Source: Pelagicoccus sp. SDUM812005
GTDB taxonomy: Bacteria > Verrucomicrobiota > Verrucomicrobiia > Opitutales > Opitutaceae
DNA: 64,000 bases
Reading direction: 5' to 3'
Assembly: GCF_031127875.1 (NCBI RefSeq)
Contig: NZ_JARXIA010000001.1
Coordinates: 868,001 to 932,000, forward strand
The translations under genes were made by a program, and so were the position numbers. The notes below the pieces were generated by a model that saw only the letters and a list, made by a program, of their open reading frames with translations, was not told the DNA's origin and did not search any database. Positions 39,117 to 42,808 of this stretch are shown piece after piece. The stretch's first letter is position 1, and the number at the start of each line of letters is the position of its first letter.

Positions 39117-39983
39117 TTATTCGTCGGCGAGCTTGTATTCCTCGAGGCGGATGGAGGCGTTGCCGACGGAGGTTTTCACGTCGAAGCGCACGGGGATGCG
39201 GCGTTCGTCGGTGGTGATCCAGACGGCCATTTTTCCGCCTTCGCGGAAAACTTTGCTGACGGGAAAGGAGCTGATGGGTTCGAGGCGGAAGCATTCGACC
39301 TCGCCGATATCGGTGTCGAGTTCCTCGATTTCCATGACTTGCAGGACGGCGTAGTAGAATTTCCCCTTGGTGCTGACGAAGATGGGATAGGTCCCGCCGA
39401 CGGCGAGGTCCATGCCGCGGAGCTGGAGGAAGGCGGAGGAGTAGTCGACGGGGCAATCGTAGGGCAGCTCGCGGATGTGGCTGTACTCGGGCTCGAGGAT
39501 GTCCTCGTAGTTCATGAGGTCGCGTTCGAAGTCGAAGAGGGTGACGGTGGAGCTCTCTTCGGAGCGGACCTTGCCTTTGGTCTCGTTGCGGAGCATGCGC
39601 CAATTTTCGGCGTCGAGGAAGGTGGTGGCGACCAGGGTCATCGGGTAGAATTTCCGAATCATGCCGGCGGAGGCGGTTTCGGTTTTTACGATGAGGGCAG
39701 GCTGGTCGGGATCGTCGCTTTCCTCGGTGGAGAAGGCGATGCGTCCGGCTTTGCGAAACCAACCCCATTGGGCGCGGTACTCGAAGGATTCGCCGGCCTT
39801 GAAGCCGCGTCCACGGACTTCTGCGGAGGGGAATTCGACCTCGGGCCAGTCTAGGTTGTCTTCCTGGCGAAGCTTGGGATCGTCCTCGAAGGCGTCGTTG
39901 CCGAATCCGGCGTGGAGGTTTGGGGGAGCTGCGAGCAGGAGCAGGCTGGCGGCTAGGAGGAGCGGGCTGAAATTCTTGAACAT
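39117..39983 (-). CDS. DUF3108 domain secreted protein
   Basis: The 288-residue protein has a signal peptide (about 1-25, LLLAASLLLLAAPPNLHAG) and the DUF3108 pattern: GRGFKAGESFEYRAQWGWFR, GRIAFSTEES, then a run of beta strands ending in RFDVKTSVGNASIRLEEYKL. DUF3108 proteins are periplasmic or outer-membrane-associated beta-rich proteins, and their role is not established. I chose ATG 39983 because the frame up to 40049 lacks coding character and the signal peptide begins here. It follows the exonuclease-ligase gene by 79 nt on the same strand. Confidence 0.85.
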   Translation of the reverse strand: MFKNFSPLLLAASLLLLAAPPNLHAGFGNDAFEDDPKLRQEDNLDWPEVEFPSAEVRGRGFKAGESFEYRAQWGWFRKAGRIAFSTEESDDPDQPALIVKTETASAGMIRKFYPMTLVATTFLDAENWRMLRNETKGKVRSEESSTVTLFDFERDLMNYEDILEPEYSHIRELPYDCPVDYSSAFLQLRGMDLAVGGTYPIFVSTKGKFYYAVLQVMEIEELDTDIGEVECFRLEPISSFPVSKVFREGGKMAVWITTDERRIPVRFDVKTSVGNASIRLEEYKLADE

Positions 39984-40062
39984 GGTTCGGCTGTTGGAGA
40001 GACGGATTGTCCGAGGATTTTTGATGCCTGCGGTGTGGGGGAGTTCCACGCTTTCTGCAAGC

Positions 40063-42351
40063 CTAGTCGCAGGGCTTGGCGGGGAGCCTTAGCCAGGACG
40101 GTGATTTGCTCAAGGGGTTGTAGGGGCTTTGGGAGTCCTTGAATACGAGGCCGGCGTTTCCGGCGCGGGCGGCTTGGGCGAGGGCGGCTTCGACTTGGTC
40201 GGCTCCGAGCAGCGGCAGGACGGGGGTAATGCGGATCTTCGGGGTGACGGAAAAGGTGTCGAGAAGCTGGCGCCGTTGCTCGAGGGGGCGGTCCAGCAGG
40301 TCTTCTCCGGCGAGGGAAAGCAGGTCGAAGAGCCAGAGCATCACGGGAACTTCCTCGCCGAGGAAGAGTTCTTCCGCTTTGCGGTTGAGGCGTTTGTCCA
40401 GCTCGGCTCGCGGCAGCGGCTTTTCGTAGCCCCACGGCACGACGACGGCGTCGCAAATGAAGTGTTGGGGAATCTTGCGGGCTTCGTCCACGAACTCGGG
40501 AAAGAGGTGGGTGACGCGTTCGCCCTTGCGGTCGTAGAGGTCGACGTGCTCGCGGTCCTTGTGGATCTGGCAGCGGATGCCGTCGTGCTCTTGCTCGGCC
40601 CAAAGCGAGAGCCCTTGCTTTTCGATGACCGCTTCGGGGGTAGGCTCCGTTTGTGCGGGCATCGGCAGGATCGGCTGGAAAGGCTGGATGCGGATGCTTG
40701 CCAGCTCGTTTCGCGCGGCGGCTTGGGAGACGGAGGCAAGGCAGGCGCTGCGCAGGTAGGCGGCCTCCACGGTGTCGGCGTCGAGCTGGTAGCGGTTTGC
40801 GATGGCTTGGCAGAGGAGCGTCGAGTCGAGCCCGCACGGGGAATTGCCGCAGAGGTAGTCGAAGAAGTAGCAGCCTTCGACGGGGGAAAGCTTGCGGAAC
40901 TGTTCGCTGAGCAGGGACTGCTTGAAGATGGGATTCGGGGCGGAGCTCAGCGTTTTGAGGAAGGAGACGAGCTGCGAAAGCGTACGGCTGGGGTTGGCTG
41001 GGTTTTGGTTGAAAAGGACGCGAGCCACTTTTCGGTTGTCGCGAAAATCGTGATACAGGCTCTTGAACTTGGCCTCAGTGGAGCCGGTTGCGAAGATGAG
41101 GCTTTGCTTGACGAGTTTGGGCGGCAGTTCGTTGAGGACGGTGGGGCTGGGCCTATCCAGCAAGGAGAGGGCGTGGGCGACGTTGTCGCTGTCGAGCGGG
41201 GCCAGGAGGGCGTCCAGGTTTTCTAGCTTCCGTTGCAGGCTGTCGGTTTGGGCGAGCGCTTCGGCGGTTTCCGCGAGCCGCTGGAAGGAGTCGCTGGGAA
41301 GGGTTTCGGCGAGTGGCGTGGCTGGAGCGCTGGGCGTGCTCGCTGGGGCGTCGGGAGCGGGGGCGACGGCGTCGATGGCGAGTCCGAGCTGGTTTTCGCG
41401 GCCGAGGGCCCAAGCTTGGTAACCCTGTTCCCGGAGGGTGGCGGCGAATTCCTTGGCGAAGCCGTGGACGGTGAATATTTCCTTGGGTTGGACCTTGGCG
41501 ACGAAGTTCTGCAGGTCGAGGTAGTCGGCGTGGTCGGAGAGTGGGAAGGCTTTGTCGCACTGGTAGCGGTAGGTCGAGGACGGGTCGATGGCCCAGCCTG
41601 AGATCATCGCTGTCTTGGCATTATGGATACTCTGGATCCATTCGGATTTCTTGGGGAGGGGCGGCGAGATTATGACCTTGCCGCTCTGGTTGCGGTGGTC
41701 GAAGGGGAGGTAGTTGGGGAACTTCCAGCCGAGCTTCTGGCAGGAGCGGGTGAGCTTGTGGGCTGCGGGATGCAGCATGACTTCGAAGCCTTGGTCGGTG
41801 AGCGACTTGAGGATGGCCTGGCTTTTGCCGAGGCTATAGCCGAAGAGTACGGGGCTGTGCCCGTTTTCTAGGGTTTCGCGGCAGAAGCGTACGATGTCGG
41901 CGTAGACTTCGTTTTCCGGGGGAAAGGTGTATCGAGGAAGTCCATACGTGGTTTCGATTACGAGGGTGTCGGCTGGAACGGGCTGGCAGGGTTCTGCGGA
42001 TATTCCGGGGGTGAGCTTGAAGTCGCCGGTGTAGAGGAAGCTGCGACCGTCTTTTTCCAGCCAGAGCATGGCCGATCCGATGATGTGGCCTGCGGGGTAG
42101 AGGCAGGCTTTGACGCCCGGTTCCAGCTCGAAGGTTTCGCCGAACTCGCGAATGAGCCATTTCCGTTCGCCGGGGAGGCGTTGCTGGATGAGCTTGGCGG
42201 TGGGCGGGCTGCAGAGGATGCTCTGGTGCTTGCCCATGTGGTCGAAATGGGCGTGGGAAACGAAGGAGCGGGCGACGGGCTTGCGCGCGTCGAGGTGCCA
42301 GTCGAGCTCGGGAAGGTAGAGCCCGTTGCGTTGCTCGATTTGCCAGCCCAC
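40063..42351 (-). CDS. Ligase-associated DNA exonuclease fused to a degenerate ATP-dependent DNA ligase
   Basis: A single 762-residue protein. Residues 1-330 are a beta-CASP/MBL exonuclease with intact metal sites: H33-x-H35-x-D37-H38, H89 (PAGHIIG), D110 (YTGDF) and SDHADY (D273-H274). After a Pro/Ala linker (330-350), residues about 352-555 match the ligase N-terminal helical domain and 575-762 the adenylation domain. Catalytic motifs are lost: the KxDG lysine is E588 (EHDGIR), motif III DGE reads DAV, and motif IV keeps only K738 in NAGLVFK. There is no OB-fold. The ligase half therefore probably binds DNA or a partner. Separate genes are the norm for this pair. Confidence 0.88.
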   Translation of the reverse strand: MGWQIEQRNGLYLPELDWHLDARKPVARSFVSHAHFDHMGKHQSILCSPPTAKLIQQRLPGERKWLIREFGETFELEPGVKACLYPAGHIIGSAMLWLEKDGRSFLYTGDFKLTPGISAEPCQPVPADTLVIETTYGLPRYTFPPENEVYADIVRFCRETLENGHSPVLFGYSLGKSQAILKSLTDQGFEVMLHPAAHKLTRSCQKLGWKFPNYLPFDHRNQSGKVIISPPLPKKSEWIQSIHNAKTAMISGWAIDPSSTYRYQCDKAFPLSDHADYLDLQNFVAKVQPKEIFTVHGFAKEFAATLREQGYQAWALGRENQLGLAIDAVAPAPDAPASTPSAPATPLAETLPSDSFQRLAETAEALAQTDSLQRKLENLDALLAPLDSDNVAHALSLLDRPSPTVLNELPPKLVKQSLIFATGSTEAKFKSLYHDFRDNRKVARVLFNQNPANPSRTLSQLVSFLKTLSSAPNPIFKQSLLSEQFRKLSPVEGCYFFDYLCGNSPCGLDSTLLCQAIANRYQLDADTVEAAYLRSACLASVSQAAARNELASIRIQPFQPILPMPAQTEPTPEAVIEKQGLSLWAEQEHDGIRCQIHKDREHVDLYDRKGERVTHLFPEFVDEARKIPQHFICDAVVVPWGYEKPLPRAELDKRLNRKAEELFLGEEVPVMLWLFDLLSLAGEDLLDRPLEQRRQLLDTFSVTPKIRITPVLPLLGADQVEAALAQAARAGNAGLVFKDSQSPYNPLSKSPSWLRLPAKPCD

Positions 42352-42388: not shown

Positions 42389-42808
42389 CTAGATCCCCTT
42401 GCGGTCGAGGCTGAGGCGTCCTGGTCCGATGAATACGAGGCCGAGCAGGGCTAGGGTCATCTGGAGGTGGGCGAGGAAGCTGAGCTGGAAGGAGGAAGCG
42501 GCGATGTGGTTGGCGAGGGCGAAACCGACGATCACAGTTAGCAGCAGGGCGGTACCGCGGGTGAACATGCCGATGATGAGAAGGATGCCGCCGAGAAACT
42601 GGACGATTCCGGAAGCGAGCCCGGCGTATTCAAAAAAGTTGGCAGGCAGGCTGGCGATTGCGGCGCCTTCTCCGACGTCAGCCCATACGGTTCCGCCTCC
42701 GGTGAGGATGGGGTAACCGTGGAAGGCGAGCAAGGCGCCTACTCCGATGCGGAGAAGGAGGACGCCGATAAAGTCGAATTTGCTGAGGCCTGCGAGGGGA
42801 GATTTCAT
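42389..42808 (-). CDS. DoxX family membrane protein
   Basis: A 139-residue protein with four hydrophobic helices and the DoxX pattern: LLRIGVGALLAFHGYPIL in helix 1, ANFFEYAGLASGIVQFLGGILL in the middle, and MTLALLGLVFIGPGRLSLD at the end. DoxX proteins are small quinone- or thiosulfate-linked membrane proteins with varied roles. It lies 37 nt upstream of the exonuclease-ligase gene on the same strand and may be cotranscribed with it, without an evident functional link. Confidence 0.85.
   Translation of the reverse strand: MKSPLAGLSKFDFIGVLLLRIGVGALLAFHGYPILTGGGTVWADVGEGAAIASLPANFFEYAGLASGIVQFLGGILLIIGMFTRGTALLLTVIVGFALANHIAASSFQLSFLAHLQMTLALLGLVFIGPGRLSLDRKGI

What the first reader, a model, noticed from the sequence alone, without database searches (positions are those of the whole stretch)
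40063..42351. DNA exonuclease fused to a catalytically dead DNA ligase
Seen: residues 1-330 keep every MBL metal ligand, while the C-terminal ATP-ligase region has lost the adenylated lysine (E588 replaces K in KxDG), the motif III Glu and the OB-fold. Known: the exonuclease and an active LigB-like ligase are usually separate neighbouring genes. Inference: the ligase half has become a DNA- or protein-binding module for the exonuclease, a repurposed pseudoenzyme.
Basis: partly seen in the sequence, partly recalled or inferred. Interest (0 to 1): 0.7.

Follow-up and report, generated by a model that had tools for sequence, protein, structure and literature searches.

The report
Nuclease fused to dead DNA ligase
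A DNA-cutting enzyme of the marine bacterium Pelagicoccus carries a DNA-joining enzyme that can no longer join DNA but appears to have been kept by evolution, apparently after losing its activity twice in related lineages.

Summary
The 762-aa minus-strand ORF 40063-42351 is a beta-CASP metallo-beta-lactamase exonuclease (1-330) fused to a LigB-type ligase. The ligase lacks the motif I lysine (E588) and the motif III and IV glutamates, and stops just after motif V, without an OB fold. It is not an error: 6 of 8 Pelagicoccus genomes, the window's included, share K-to-E and the truncation (63-77% identity to the window). In a second genus of uncultured Opitutaceae, 7 of 11 genomes have the truncated form, with K-to-L (6) or K-to-R (1).

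Intact fusions, known in print from Opitutus terrae, sit at the same locus in the other two Pelagicoccus genomes and in the second genus's sister genus. Exonuclease and RpoN trees reject one origin for the dead forms (p-AU 0.008, 0.003); the ligase-half tree disagrees. So the ligase most likely died twice.

The dead half is not drifting freely: dN/dS is 0.05-0.09, no stops occur where a neutral simulation expects 11-12, and constraint resumed after a burst on each stem. Key ATP-pocket residues are gone in both lineages, and the DNA-contact loop is gone in Pelagicoccus. I favour a structural or docking module over a nick-binding one; no partner is known.

The parts
40063..42351 (-). exonuclease / pseudo-ligase fusion gene, GTG start, 762 aa, stop at 40063-40065
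   Evidence: single full-length match in the genome
41362..42351 (-). beta-CASP metallo-beta-lactamase exonuclease domain (residues 1-330); active-site positions kept
   Evidence: TIGR04122 230.5 bits over 7-316 (below its cut-off of 325), RMMBL, Z 29.2 to archaeal beta-CASP protein 2xr1, rmsd 2.9, 308 aligned, invariant residues
41287..41388 (-). disordered, fast-changing linker (residues 322-355)
   Evidence: pLDDT under 50 at 322-344; 12-85% identity at 331-355 over 14 pairs
40702..41286 (-). ligase N-terminal DNA-binding-type domain (residues 356-550), degenerate
   Evidence: PF04675 355-518; of 34 sites conserved in the 23 other fusions, 4 lost and 5 kept in all 13 dead copies
40834..40845 (-). 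former D-L-R-I(G) loop (residues 503-506), now N-S-P-C
   Evidence: its role in DNA contact is recalled from human LIG1 structures
40081..40701 (-). ligase nucleotidyltransferase core (residues 551-757), scaffold kept, active site lost
   Evidence: PF01068 98 bits; of 85 conserved sites, 24 kept and 15 lost in all 13 dead copies
40588..40590 (-). codon of E588, replacing the adenylated lysine of motif I
40444..40446 (-). codon of V636, replacing the motif III glutamate
40153..40155 (-). codon of A733, replacing the motif IV glutamate
42389..42808 (-). DoxX-family gene upstream; marks the orthologous locus
   Evidence: PF07681; same neighbour beside intact, dead and broken copies
39117..40049 (-). 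DUF3108 gene downstream; marks the orthologous locus
   Evidence: PF11306

Best explanation
The gene descends from an intact exonuclease-LigB ligase fusion of the ligase-associated DNA repair (LAD) type. SHOWN by sequence: in the Pelagicoccus lineage the ligase half lost its adenylated lysine, key ATP-pocket residues, its OB fold and its DLRIG loop, while the exonuclease active-site positions stayed complete; the remaining two ligase domains are still under purifying selection. SUPPORTED by trees: the same conversion occurred a second time in a related genus. INFERRED: the LAD helicase and PdeM endonuclease were lost first (the four nearest intact fusions already lack them), which removed the need for ligation; the ligase core then served only as a non-catalytic attachment of the exonuclease. 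Most likely it is a structural or protein-docking module that positions or stabilises the exonuclease at its repair site, with sealing left to another ligase. Rough odds: catalytically dead 0.97; kept by selection 0.9; two separate inactivations 0.8 (lowered from 0.85 when I recounted the conflicting site patterns in the ligase half); docking or structural role rather than DNA binding 0.6.
For: Motifs: 13 of 13 dead copies lack the lysine (6 E, 6 L, 1 R), while 23 of 23 other fusions aligned keep it. In the named-genome scan I read 55 of the 80 loci returned (those matching beyond the exonuclease): 9 dead, 4 broken or cut before motif I, and 42 of the remaining 42 keep the lysine (partly the same genomes as above). 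Which sites went: 15 of 85 conserved core sites are lost in all 13, including K588, E636, Y675, E733, R748 and R749; 0 of 118 conserved exonuclease sites are. Selection: ML dN/dS of the core is 0.057 (dead Pelagicoccus) and 0.049 (dead second genus), of the N-domain 0.088 and 0.053, of the exonuclease 0.045 and 0.063; the one intact group of similar divergence (g4) has 0.075, 0.086 and 0.057. Pairwise: core 0.05-0.21 in dead and 0.08-0.17 in intact pairs. Neutral simulation, three pairs: 11-12 stops and 15-18% identity expected, 0 stops and 60-74% observed. Burst then constraint, on one fixed topology: ligase-half over exonuclease-half length is 7.3 and 3.7 on the two dead stems, 0.7 and 1.0 on the two intact sister stems, then 2.1 and 1.2 within the dead clades against 1.2-1.6 within three intact ones. 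Two origins: exonuclease tree p-AU 0.008 and RpoN tree p-AU 0.003 against one clade; shared locus. Partner loss: a LAD-type helicase and PdeM (scores below the family cut-offs) sit beside the fusion in 6 of 13 intact genomes; neither was found beside it or over cut-off in the 4 nearest intact ones or in 12 of 13 dead ones. Against DNA binding: basic sites 494, 498, 505 and 509 are lost in 6 of 6 dead Pelagicoccus copies; mean core net charge is -9.8 and -8.6 in the dead groups against -4.8 (4 nearest intact) and +0.4 (16 other intact; 3 incomplete rows dropped).
Against: No partner, no conserved docking surface and no biochemistry are known; docking is chosen by elimination. The second genus keeps basic residues at 494, 498, 505 and 529 in 57-86% of copies, so weak DNA binding is open there. 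The ligase-half tree joins the two dead groups (100/98); holding the 8 Pelagicoccus copies together on it is not rejected (p-AU 0.07). Site patterns in the ligase half conflict: 21 sites unite dead and intact Pelagicoccus, 10 unite the dead second genus with its intact sister, 11 the two dead groups, but 15 the dead second genus with intact Pelagicoccus and 5 the reverse pair; only the exonuclease half is clear (26, 19, 5, 7, 5). Other intact groups have lower core dN/dS (0.014-0.023) than the dead ones, though on near-saturated trees. Two genomes have the locus broken altogether (G354, G302), so the protein is dispensable somewhere. Eight sampled relatives have the exonuclease and no PF01068 ligase at all. 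An AlphaFold run with dead sequences only (11 rows) was poor (pLDDT 65, 639-710 under 50), though it failed on residues 1-42 of the exonuclease too.
Confidence: 0.6

Rival explanations
1. The ligase half is a DNA-end or nick-binding module that delivers the exonuclease to damaged DNA, having lost only catalysis.
For: It keeps a fold like DNA ligase domains 1 and 2; Arg593, Arg654, Arg693 and Lys738 are kept in all 13; the second genus retains part of the basic loop in some members.
Against: The OB fold, which closes the clamp around a nick (recalled), is missing in 13 of 13; the DLRIG loop and four conserved basic sites are lost in 6 of 6 dead Pelagicoccus copies; the core is more acidic.
Confidence: 0.22
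2. The ligase half is a decaying remnant with no function, on its way to loss.
For: The N-domain changes fast in Pelagicoccus (47-70% identity where the exonuclease has 78-85%, six pairs); G354 and G302 carry broken copies; two exonuclease-alone relatives lie inside the intact-fusion clade, so the half has apparently been lost outright there (L019, L020).
Against: dN/dS 0.05-0.09 and no stop in 13 of 13 copies although dS is about 1 or more for most pairs; neutral simulation rejected; constraint resumed after the stem burst; all 13 end within a few residues of one point instead of at scattered stops.
Confidence: 0.1
3. A single inactivation in the common ancestor, with the intact form later restored in two lineages by exchange with an intact donor.
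For: The ligase-half tree groups the 13 dead copies; 11 ligase-half sites, among them the Pro-Leu after Tyr-Asn/Asp, are shared by the dead groups only, and ligase-half site patterns conflict; the end point is the same.
Against: Exonuclease and RpoN trees place intact and dead copies together within each lineage; 21 ligase-half sites unite dead and intact Pelagicoccus; intact, dead and broken copies sit in the same locus.
Confidence: 0.13
4. The half still seals DNA in an unusual way, for example only the last step on pre-adenylated DNA or with another lysine.
For: Arg593 and Lys738 are kept in all 13.
Against: Motif III and IV glutamates and the OB fold are replaced or absent in all 13; the second motif V lysine is replaced in dead Pelagicoccus. 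The nearby conserved lysine K598 is also present in most intact copies, so it is not a substitute gained.
Confidence: 0.03

Closest known systems
Exonuclease-LigB fusion of Opitutus terrae (Ejaz and Shuman 2018, known to me only as cited in PMC10140301) and Antarctic metagenome fusion DV-1-1-Nuc-Lig (PMC10140301, passages read)
   Same: Same domain order: RMMBL exonuclease, DNA_ligase_A_N, A_M. The ligase half alone of DV-1-1 seals nicks with ATP; its nuclease half was insoluble and untested.
   Different: DV-1-1 has the C-terminal OB domain and an active ligase; the Pelagicoccus protein lacks the OB domain and the catalytic residues.
LAD operon: TIGR04120 ligase, TIGR04122 exonuclease, TIGR04121 helicase, TIGR04123 PdeM
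   Same: Homologous exonuclease and ligase.
   Different: Here fused, ligase dead, no LAD helicase or PdeM found in the genome; scores below the family cut-offs.
Poxvirus A20 polymerase processivity factor, middle domain described as an inactive DNA ligase (PMC11142717, passages read)
   Same: A natural dead DNA ligase used as a non-catalytic part of a larger DNA enzyme: the best functional analogue.
   Different: Viral, keeps an OB fold, serves a polymerase; no claim of direct kinship.
Catalytically inactive mammalian DNA ligase 4 (PMC11754673 abstract; PMC9638927 search listing only)
   Same: Shows that a ligase without catalysis can keep a structural repair role.
   Different: An engineered point mutant, not a natural lineage; no fusion to a nuclease.

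Membership tests
LigB-type ATP-dependent DNA ligase (TIGR04120) | score above family cut-off (400 bits) | tested here: not met
   116.3 bits
LigB-type ATP-dependent DNA ligase (TIGR04120) | motif I lysine and motif III glutamate | tested here: not met
   E588 and V636
LigB-type ATP-dependent DNA ligase (TIGR04120) | C-terminal OB fold | tested here: not met
   no PF04679 match in the protein, no remnant downstream
LigB-type ATP-dependent DNA ligase (TIGR04120) | DNA-binding plus nucleotidyltransferase domain folds | tested here: met
   predicted model 354-762 vs 3rr5, Z 36.1, rmsd 3.6, 406 aligned; the alignment behind the model held 19 intact relatives, and a dead-only alignment gave a poor model
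LAD exonuclease (TIGR04122) | complete beta-CASP MBL active-site positions | tested here: met
   invariant in 32 of 32 fusions; position names recalled
LAD exonuclease (TIGR04122) | score above family cut-off (325 bits) | tested here: not met
   230.5 bits over 7-316; the separate canonical exonuclease of G345 scores 472.5
LAD exonuclease (TIGR04122) | exonuclease activity on DNA | not testable with these tools
   none
LAD repair system | helicase and PdeM in the genome or beside the gene | tested here: not met
   best helicase hit in G000 is a 1438-aa Lhr-type frame on another contig (448 bits, cut-off 850); best PdeM hit 22.8 bits (cut-off 150)
Pseudoenzyme | catalytic residues lost in a conserved fold | tested here: met
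Pseudoenzyme | retained by selection | tested here: met
Pseudoenzyme | demonstrated absence of activity and a demonstrated new role | not testable with these tools
   none

The most novel reading that the evidence does not exclude
A natural bacterial pseudo-DNA-ligase: an active nuclease-ligase fusion converted twice in parallel, by loss of the ATP pocket and removal of the OB fold at the same point, into a non-catalytic scaffold domain of a beta-CASP repair nuclease, a bacterial counterpart of the dead ligase in the poxvirus polymerase holoenzyme.
Probability: 0.5. Interest if true: 0.75.

Novelty: new variant of a known kind. Interest (0 to 1): 0.6.

Why it matters
The role of the LAD exonuclease, and why it is fused to a ligase, is stated to be undetermined (PMC10140301, passages). 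A lineage in which evolution removed ligation but kept the ligase body separates the two questions: what the ligase domain does for the nuclease other than sealing can be tested directly by comparing intact and dead orthologues at one locus, within one genus that has cultured members. Parallel inactivation with the same domain deletion would be a rare natural replicate of pseudoenzyme birth.

Tried and rejected
Sequencing error or a lone mutant: rejected, because 6 of 8 Pelagicoccus genomes (the named ones include strain SDUM812002, P. mobilis and DG1235) and 7 of 11 genomes of a second genus share the state. Horizontal transfer of the dead form: disfavoured by shared synteny and an agreeing RpoN tree. 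OB fold kept as a separate gene just downstream: none found. ATP-sensor role: disfavoured because pocket residues are lost. Fold control: the dead-only AlphaFold run was too poor to use. Papers: 'DNA ligase' with 'pseudoenzyme', 'Pelagicoccus' with 'DNA ligase' (none) and with 'DNA repair' (one listing, on an endosymbiont genome), pseudoligase-type terms, inactive ligase with Opitut and LAD terms listed no title or abstract describing this dead fusion; this covers one open-licence library only and most listed papers were not opened. Ejaz and Shuman 2018 is not held. A vaccinia A20 search needing four of five terms found nothing.

Technical failures: one search read minus-strand loci on the wrong strand (redone); one search failed on a thread setting (trees redone with treekit); one search's pattern misread motif I in L124, L126 and L172 (checked); searches did not parse dN/dS (found, read).
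Full report
What is there. Minus-strand ORF 40063-42351 encodes 762 aa, with one full-length match in a 6.65-Mb genome. Residues 7-316 match the ligase-associated exonuclease model TIGR04122 (230.5 bits, cut-off 325) and 357-756 match ATP-dependent ligase models (TIGR04120 116.3, NF002868 130.7 bits, far below cut-offs). Pfam gives RMMBL, DNA_ligase_A_N and DNA_ligase_A_M but no OB fold. An AlphaFold model on a 32-row alignment has mean pLDDT 86.9 and pTM 0.53, with a disordered linker at 322-344. Its C-terminal half aligns with archaeal DNA ligase residues 12-437 (Z 36.1, rmsd 3.6, 406 residues) and its N-terminal half with archaeal beta-CASP proteins (Z 29.2 to 2xr1, rmsd 2.9, 308 residues). 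The relative placing of the two halves is not known (pTM 0.53).

Relatives. I searched 223 genomes of the order, 200 of the family, the 8 held of the genus and the 11 held of a second genus. Among the loci read, three forms occur: exonuclease alone; full-length fusion (887-969 aa where seen) with KYDG-, DGE-, EGL-, WLKLKK- and RFPR-type motifs; and the truncated form of 753-765 aa. The truncated form is in 6 of 8 genomes of the window's genus and 7 of 11 of the second genus; the latter also has one broken copy (G354), one remnant (G302), one contig-end fragment (G402) and one genome without a match (G393). A named scan identifies the window's genus as Pelagicoccus (SDUM812002, P. mobilis, DG1235 titled 'Verrucomicrobiae bacterium'; one intact Pelagicoccus MAG) and the second genus as uncultured Opitutaceae or Opitutales MAGs (I matched names to handles by protein length, motif and in part contig length). 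By record title, intact fusions also occur in Akkermansiaceae and Verrucomicrobiales MAGs.

Motifs. In 35 aligned fusions plus G401 the motif I lysine is E in 6 of 6 dead Pelagicoccus copies, L in 6 and R in 1 of 7 dead copies of the second genus, and K in 23 of 23 others. The motif III Glu is V or A in the first group and T or L in the second. All 13 dead copies end just after the motif V region; tblastn with two intact OB regions finds a remnant downstream of 0 of 13. Of sites at least 95% conserved in the 23 others, 15 of 85 core sites and 4 of 34 N-domain sites are lost in all 13 dead copies, against 0 of 118 exonuclease sites; 24, 5 and 89 are kept in all 13. The lost core sites include the catalytic and ATP-pocket positions (motif names recalled).

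History. Exonuclease tree of 47 rows: dead Pelagicoccus copies join the two intact Pelagicoccus ones (100/97), and the dead second genus joins two intact genomes of another genus (95/84); the dead as one clade are rejected (p-AU 0.008). RpoN tree of 24 genomes: Pelagicoccus including the intact ones 100/99, dead Pelagicoccus 100/100, second genus with its intact sister 85/83; dead plus broken as one clade rejected (p-AU 0.003). The ligase-half tree of 36 rows joins the dead groups instead (100/98), and holding the 8 Pelagicoccus copies together on it costs 24.8 log units, p-AU 0.07. Site patterns are clear in the exonuclease half (26 sites unite dead with intact Pelagicoccus, 19 the second pair, 5 the two dead groups, 7 and 5 the crossed pairs) and mixed in the ligase half (21, 10, 11, and 15 and 5 crossed). 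I read this as two inactivations with convergence and long branches in the dead halves. Of 20 stretches tested, some of them the same locus held twice, 19 have DoxX and 17 have DUF3108 near the fusion; without both is only L089, the second operon of G345, and without DUF3108 also L105 and L091, which hold the same intact copy.

Selection. ML dN/dS for exonuclease, N-domain and core: dead Pelagicoccus 0.045, 0.088, 0.057; dead second genus 0.063, 0.053, 0.049; intact group g4 0.057, 0.086, 0.075; three other intact groups, most with longer and near-saturated trees, 0.012-0.029, 0.013-0.035, 0.014-0.023. Pairwise counts over 14 pairs: core 0.05-0.21 in dead, 0.08-0.17 in intact; N-domain 0.09-0.43 and 0.14-0.34; a few pairs gave no value because of saturation. 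A neutral simulation over three pairs expects 11-12 stops in the ligase half and 15-18% identity; observed are none and 60-74%. On one fixed topology the ligase half shows a burst on the two dead stems (0.689 vs 0.095 and 0.810 vs 0.221 for the exonuclease), not on the two intact sister stems (0.037 vs 0.056; 0.292 vs 0.305), and returns to ratios of 2.1 and 1.2 inside the dead clades, against 1.2-1.6 inside three intact ones. This looks like a change of function followed by constraint rather than drift, with some relaxation of the N-domain in Pelagicoccus.

System context. Over 36 chosen genomes (13 intact, 13 dead, 2 broken, 8 exonuclease-alone), a LAD-type helicase and PdeM lie beside the fusion in 6 of 13 intact ones (G231, G172, G114, G013, G035, G135; all below the curated cut-offs). 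The other 7, including the 4 nearest to the dead forms, show neither beside the fusion nor over cut-off. Of 13 dead-fusion genomes only G345 has them, in a second, complete canonical operon with its own ligase over the TIGR04120 cut-off; of 2 broken ones G302 has a helicase and PdeM over cut-off beside a separate exonuclease and ligase; 0 of 8 exonuclease-alone genomes have them. Helicase hits of about 415-456 bits in frames of 1435-1481 aa lie elsewhere in many of these genomes and look like full-length Lhr (recalled). In 11 of 13 dead-fusion genomes the pseudo-ligase is the only PF01068 match; the window's genome and G345 have others, in the window's genome a LigD beside a Ku gene. Partner loss before ligase death is a reasonable, inferred order.

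Mechanism. Without the lysine the half cannot charge itself with AMP (established ligase chemistry, recalled). In dead Pelagicoccus copies the DLRIG loop and the basic sites 494, 498, 505 and 509 are also lost, and the core is more acidic than in intact fusions; the second genus keeps some of these basic residues. I therefore favour a structural or docking role for the exonuclease. The only experimental hint is indirect: in PMC10140301 (passages) the nuclease half of an intact fusion was insoluble when made alone, but the full-length protein also expressed poorly, with poor solubility. A natural precedent for a dead ligase as scaffold is the poxvirus A20 middle domain (PMC11142717, passages); a mutant precedent is dead Lig4 (PMC11754673, abstract).

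Known or new. The intact fusion is known. The dead, OB-less form, its likely double origin and its retention appeared in none of the listings of nine literature searches of one open-licence library, most listed papers not being opened. I file it as a new variant of a known kind.

Noticed in passing
G345:C73:27064-33122 (L089:3065-9123) and G302:C13:99439-105128: Canonical LAD operon (exonuclease, ligase, DEXH helicase, PdeM; all four over the family cut-offs in G345, helicase and PdeM in G302) in genomes whose fusion is dead or broken: the pathway seems to have been regained as a separate operon.
   Followed up: partly
L072 / L088 (G354) and L087 (G302), between DoxX and DUF3108: Broken copies of the fusion at the same locus: an in-frame stop in the exonuclease plus frameshifts in the ligase half (G354), and a remnant lacking most of the exonuclease (G302). 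Assembly error cannot be excluded for G354.
   Followed up: partly
G000:C35:34494-38012 (L003): The window's genome has a Ku gene next to a three-domain LigD.
   Followed up: partly
G094:C1:1974769-1977039: A distant fusion-like match (25% identity over 7-745, 914-aa frame, 2 TAA inside the match) in another family of the order; not read.
   Followed up: no
order-level relatives in families f11, f20, f21, f24: Exonuclease-length matches 39-45% identical to the fused exonuclease, distinct from the canonical ~30% LAD exonucleases; whether they act without a ligase is unknown.
   Followed up: no
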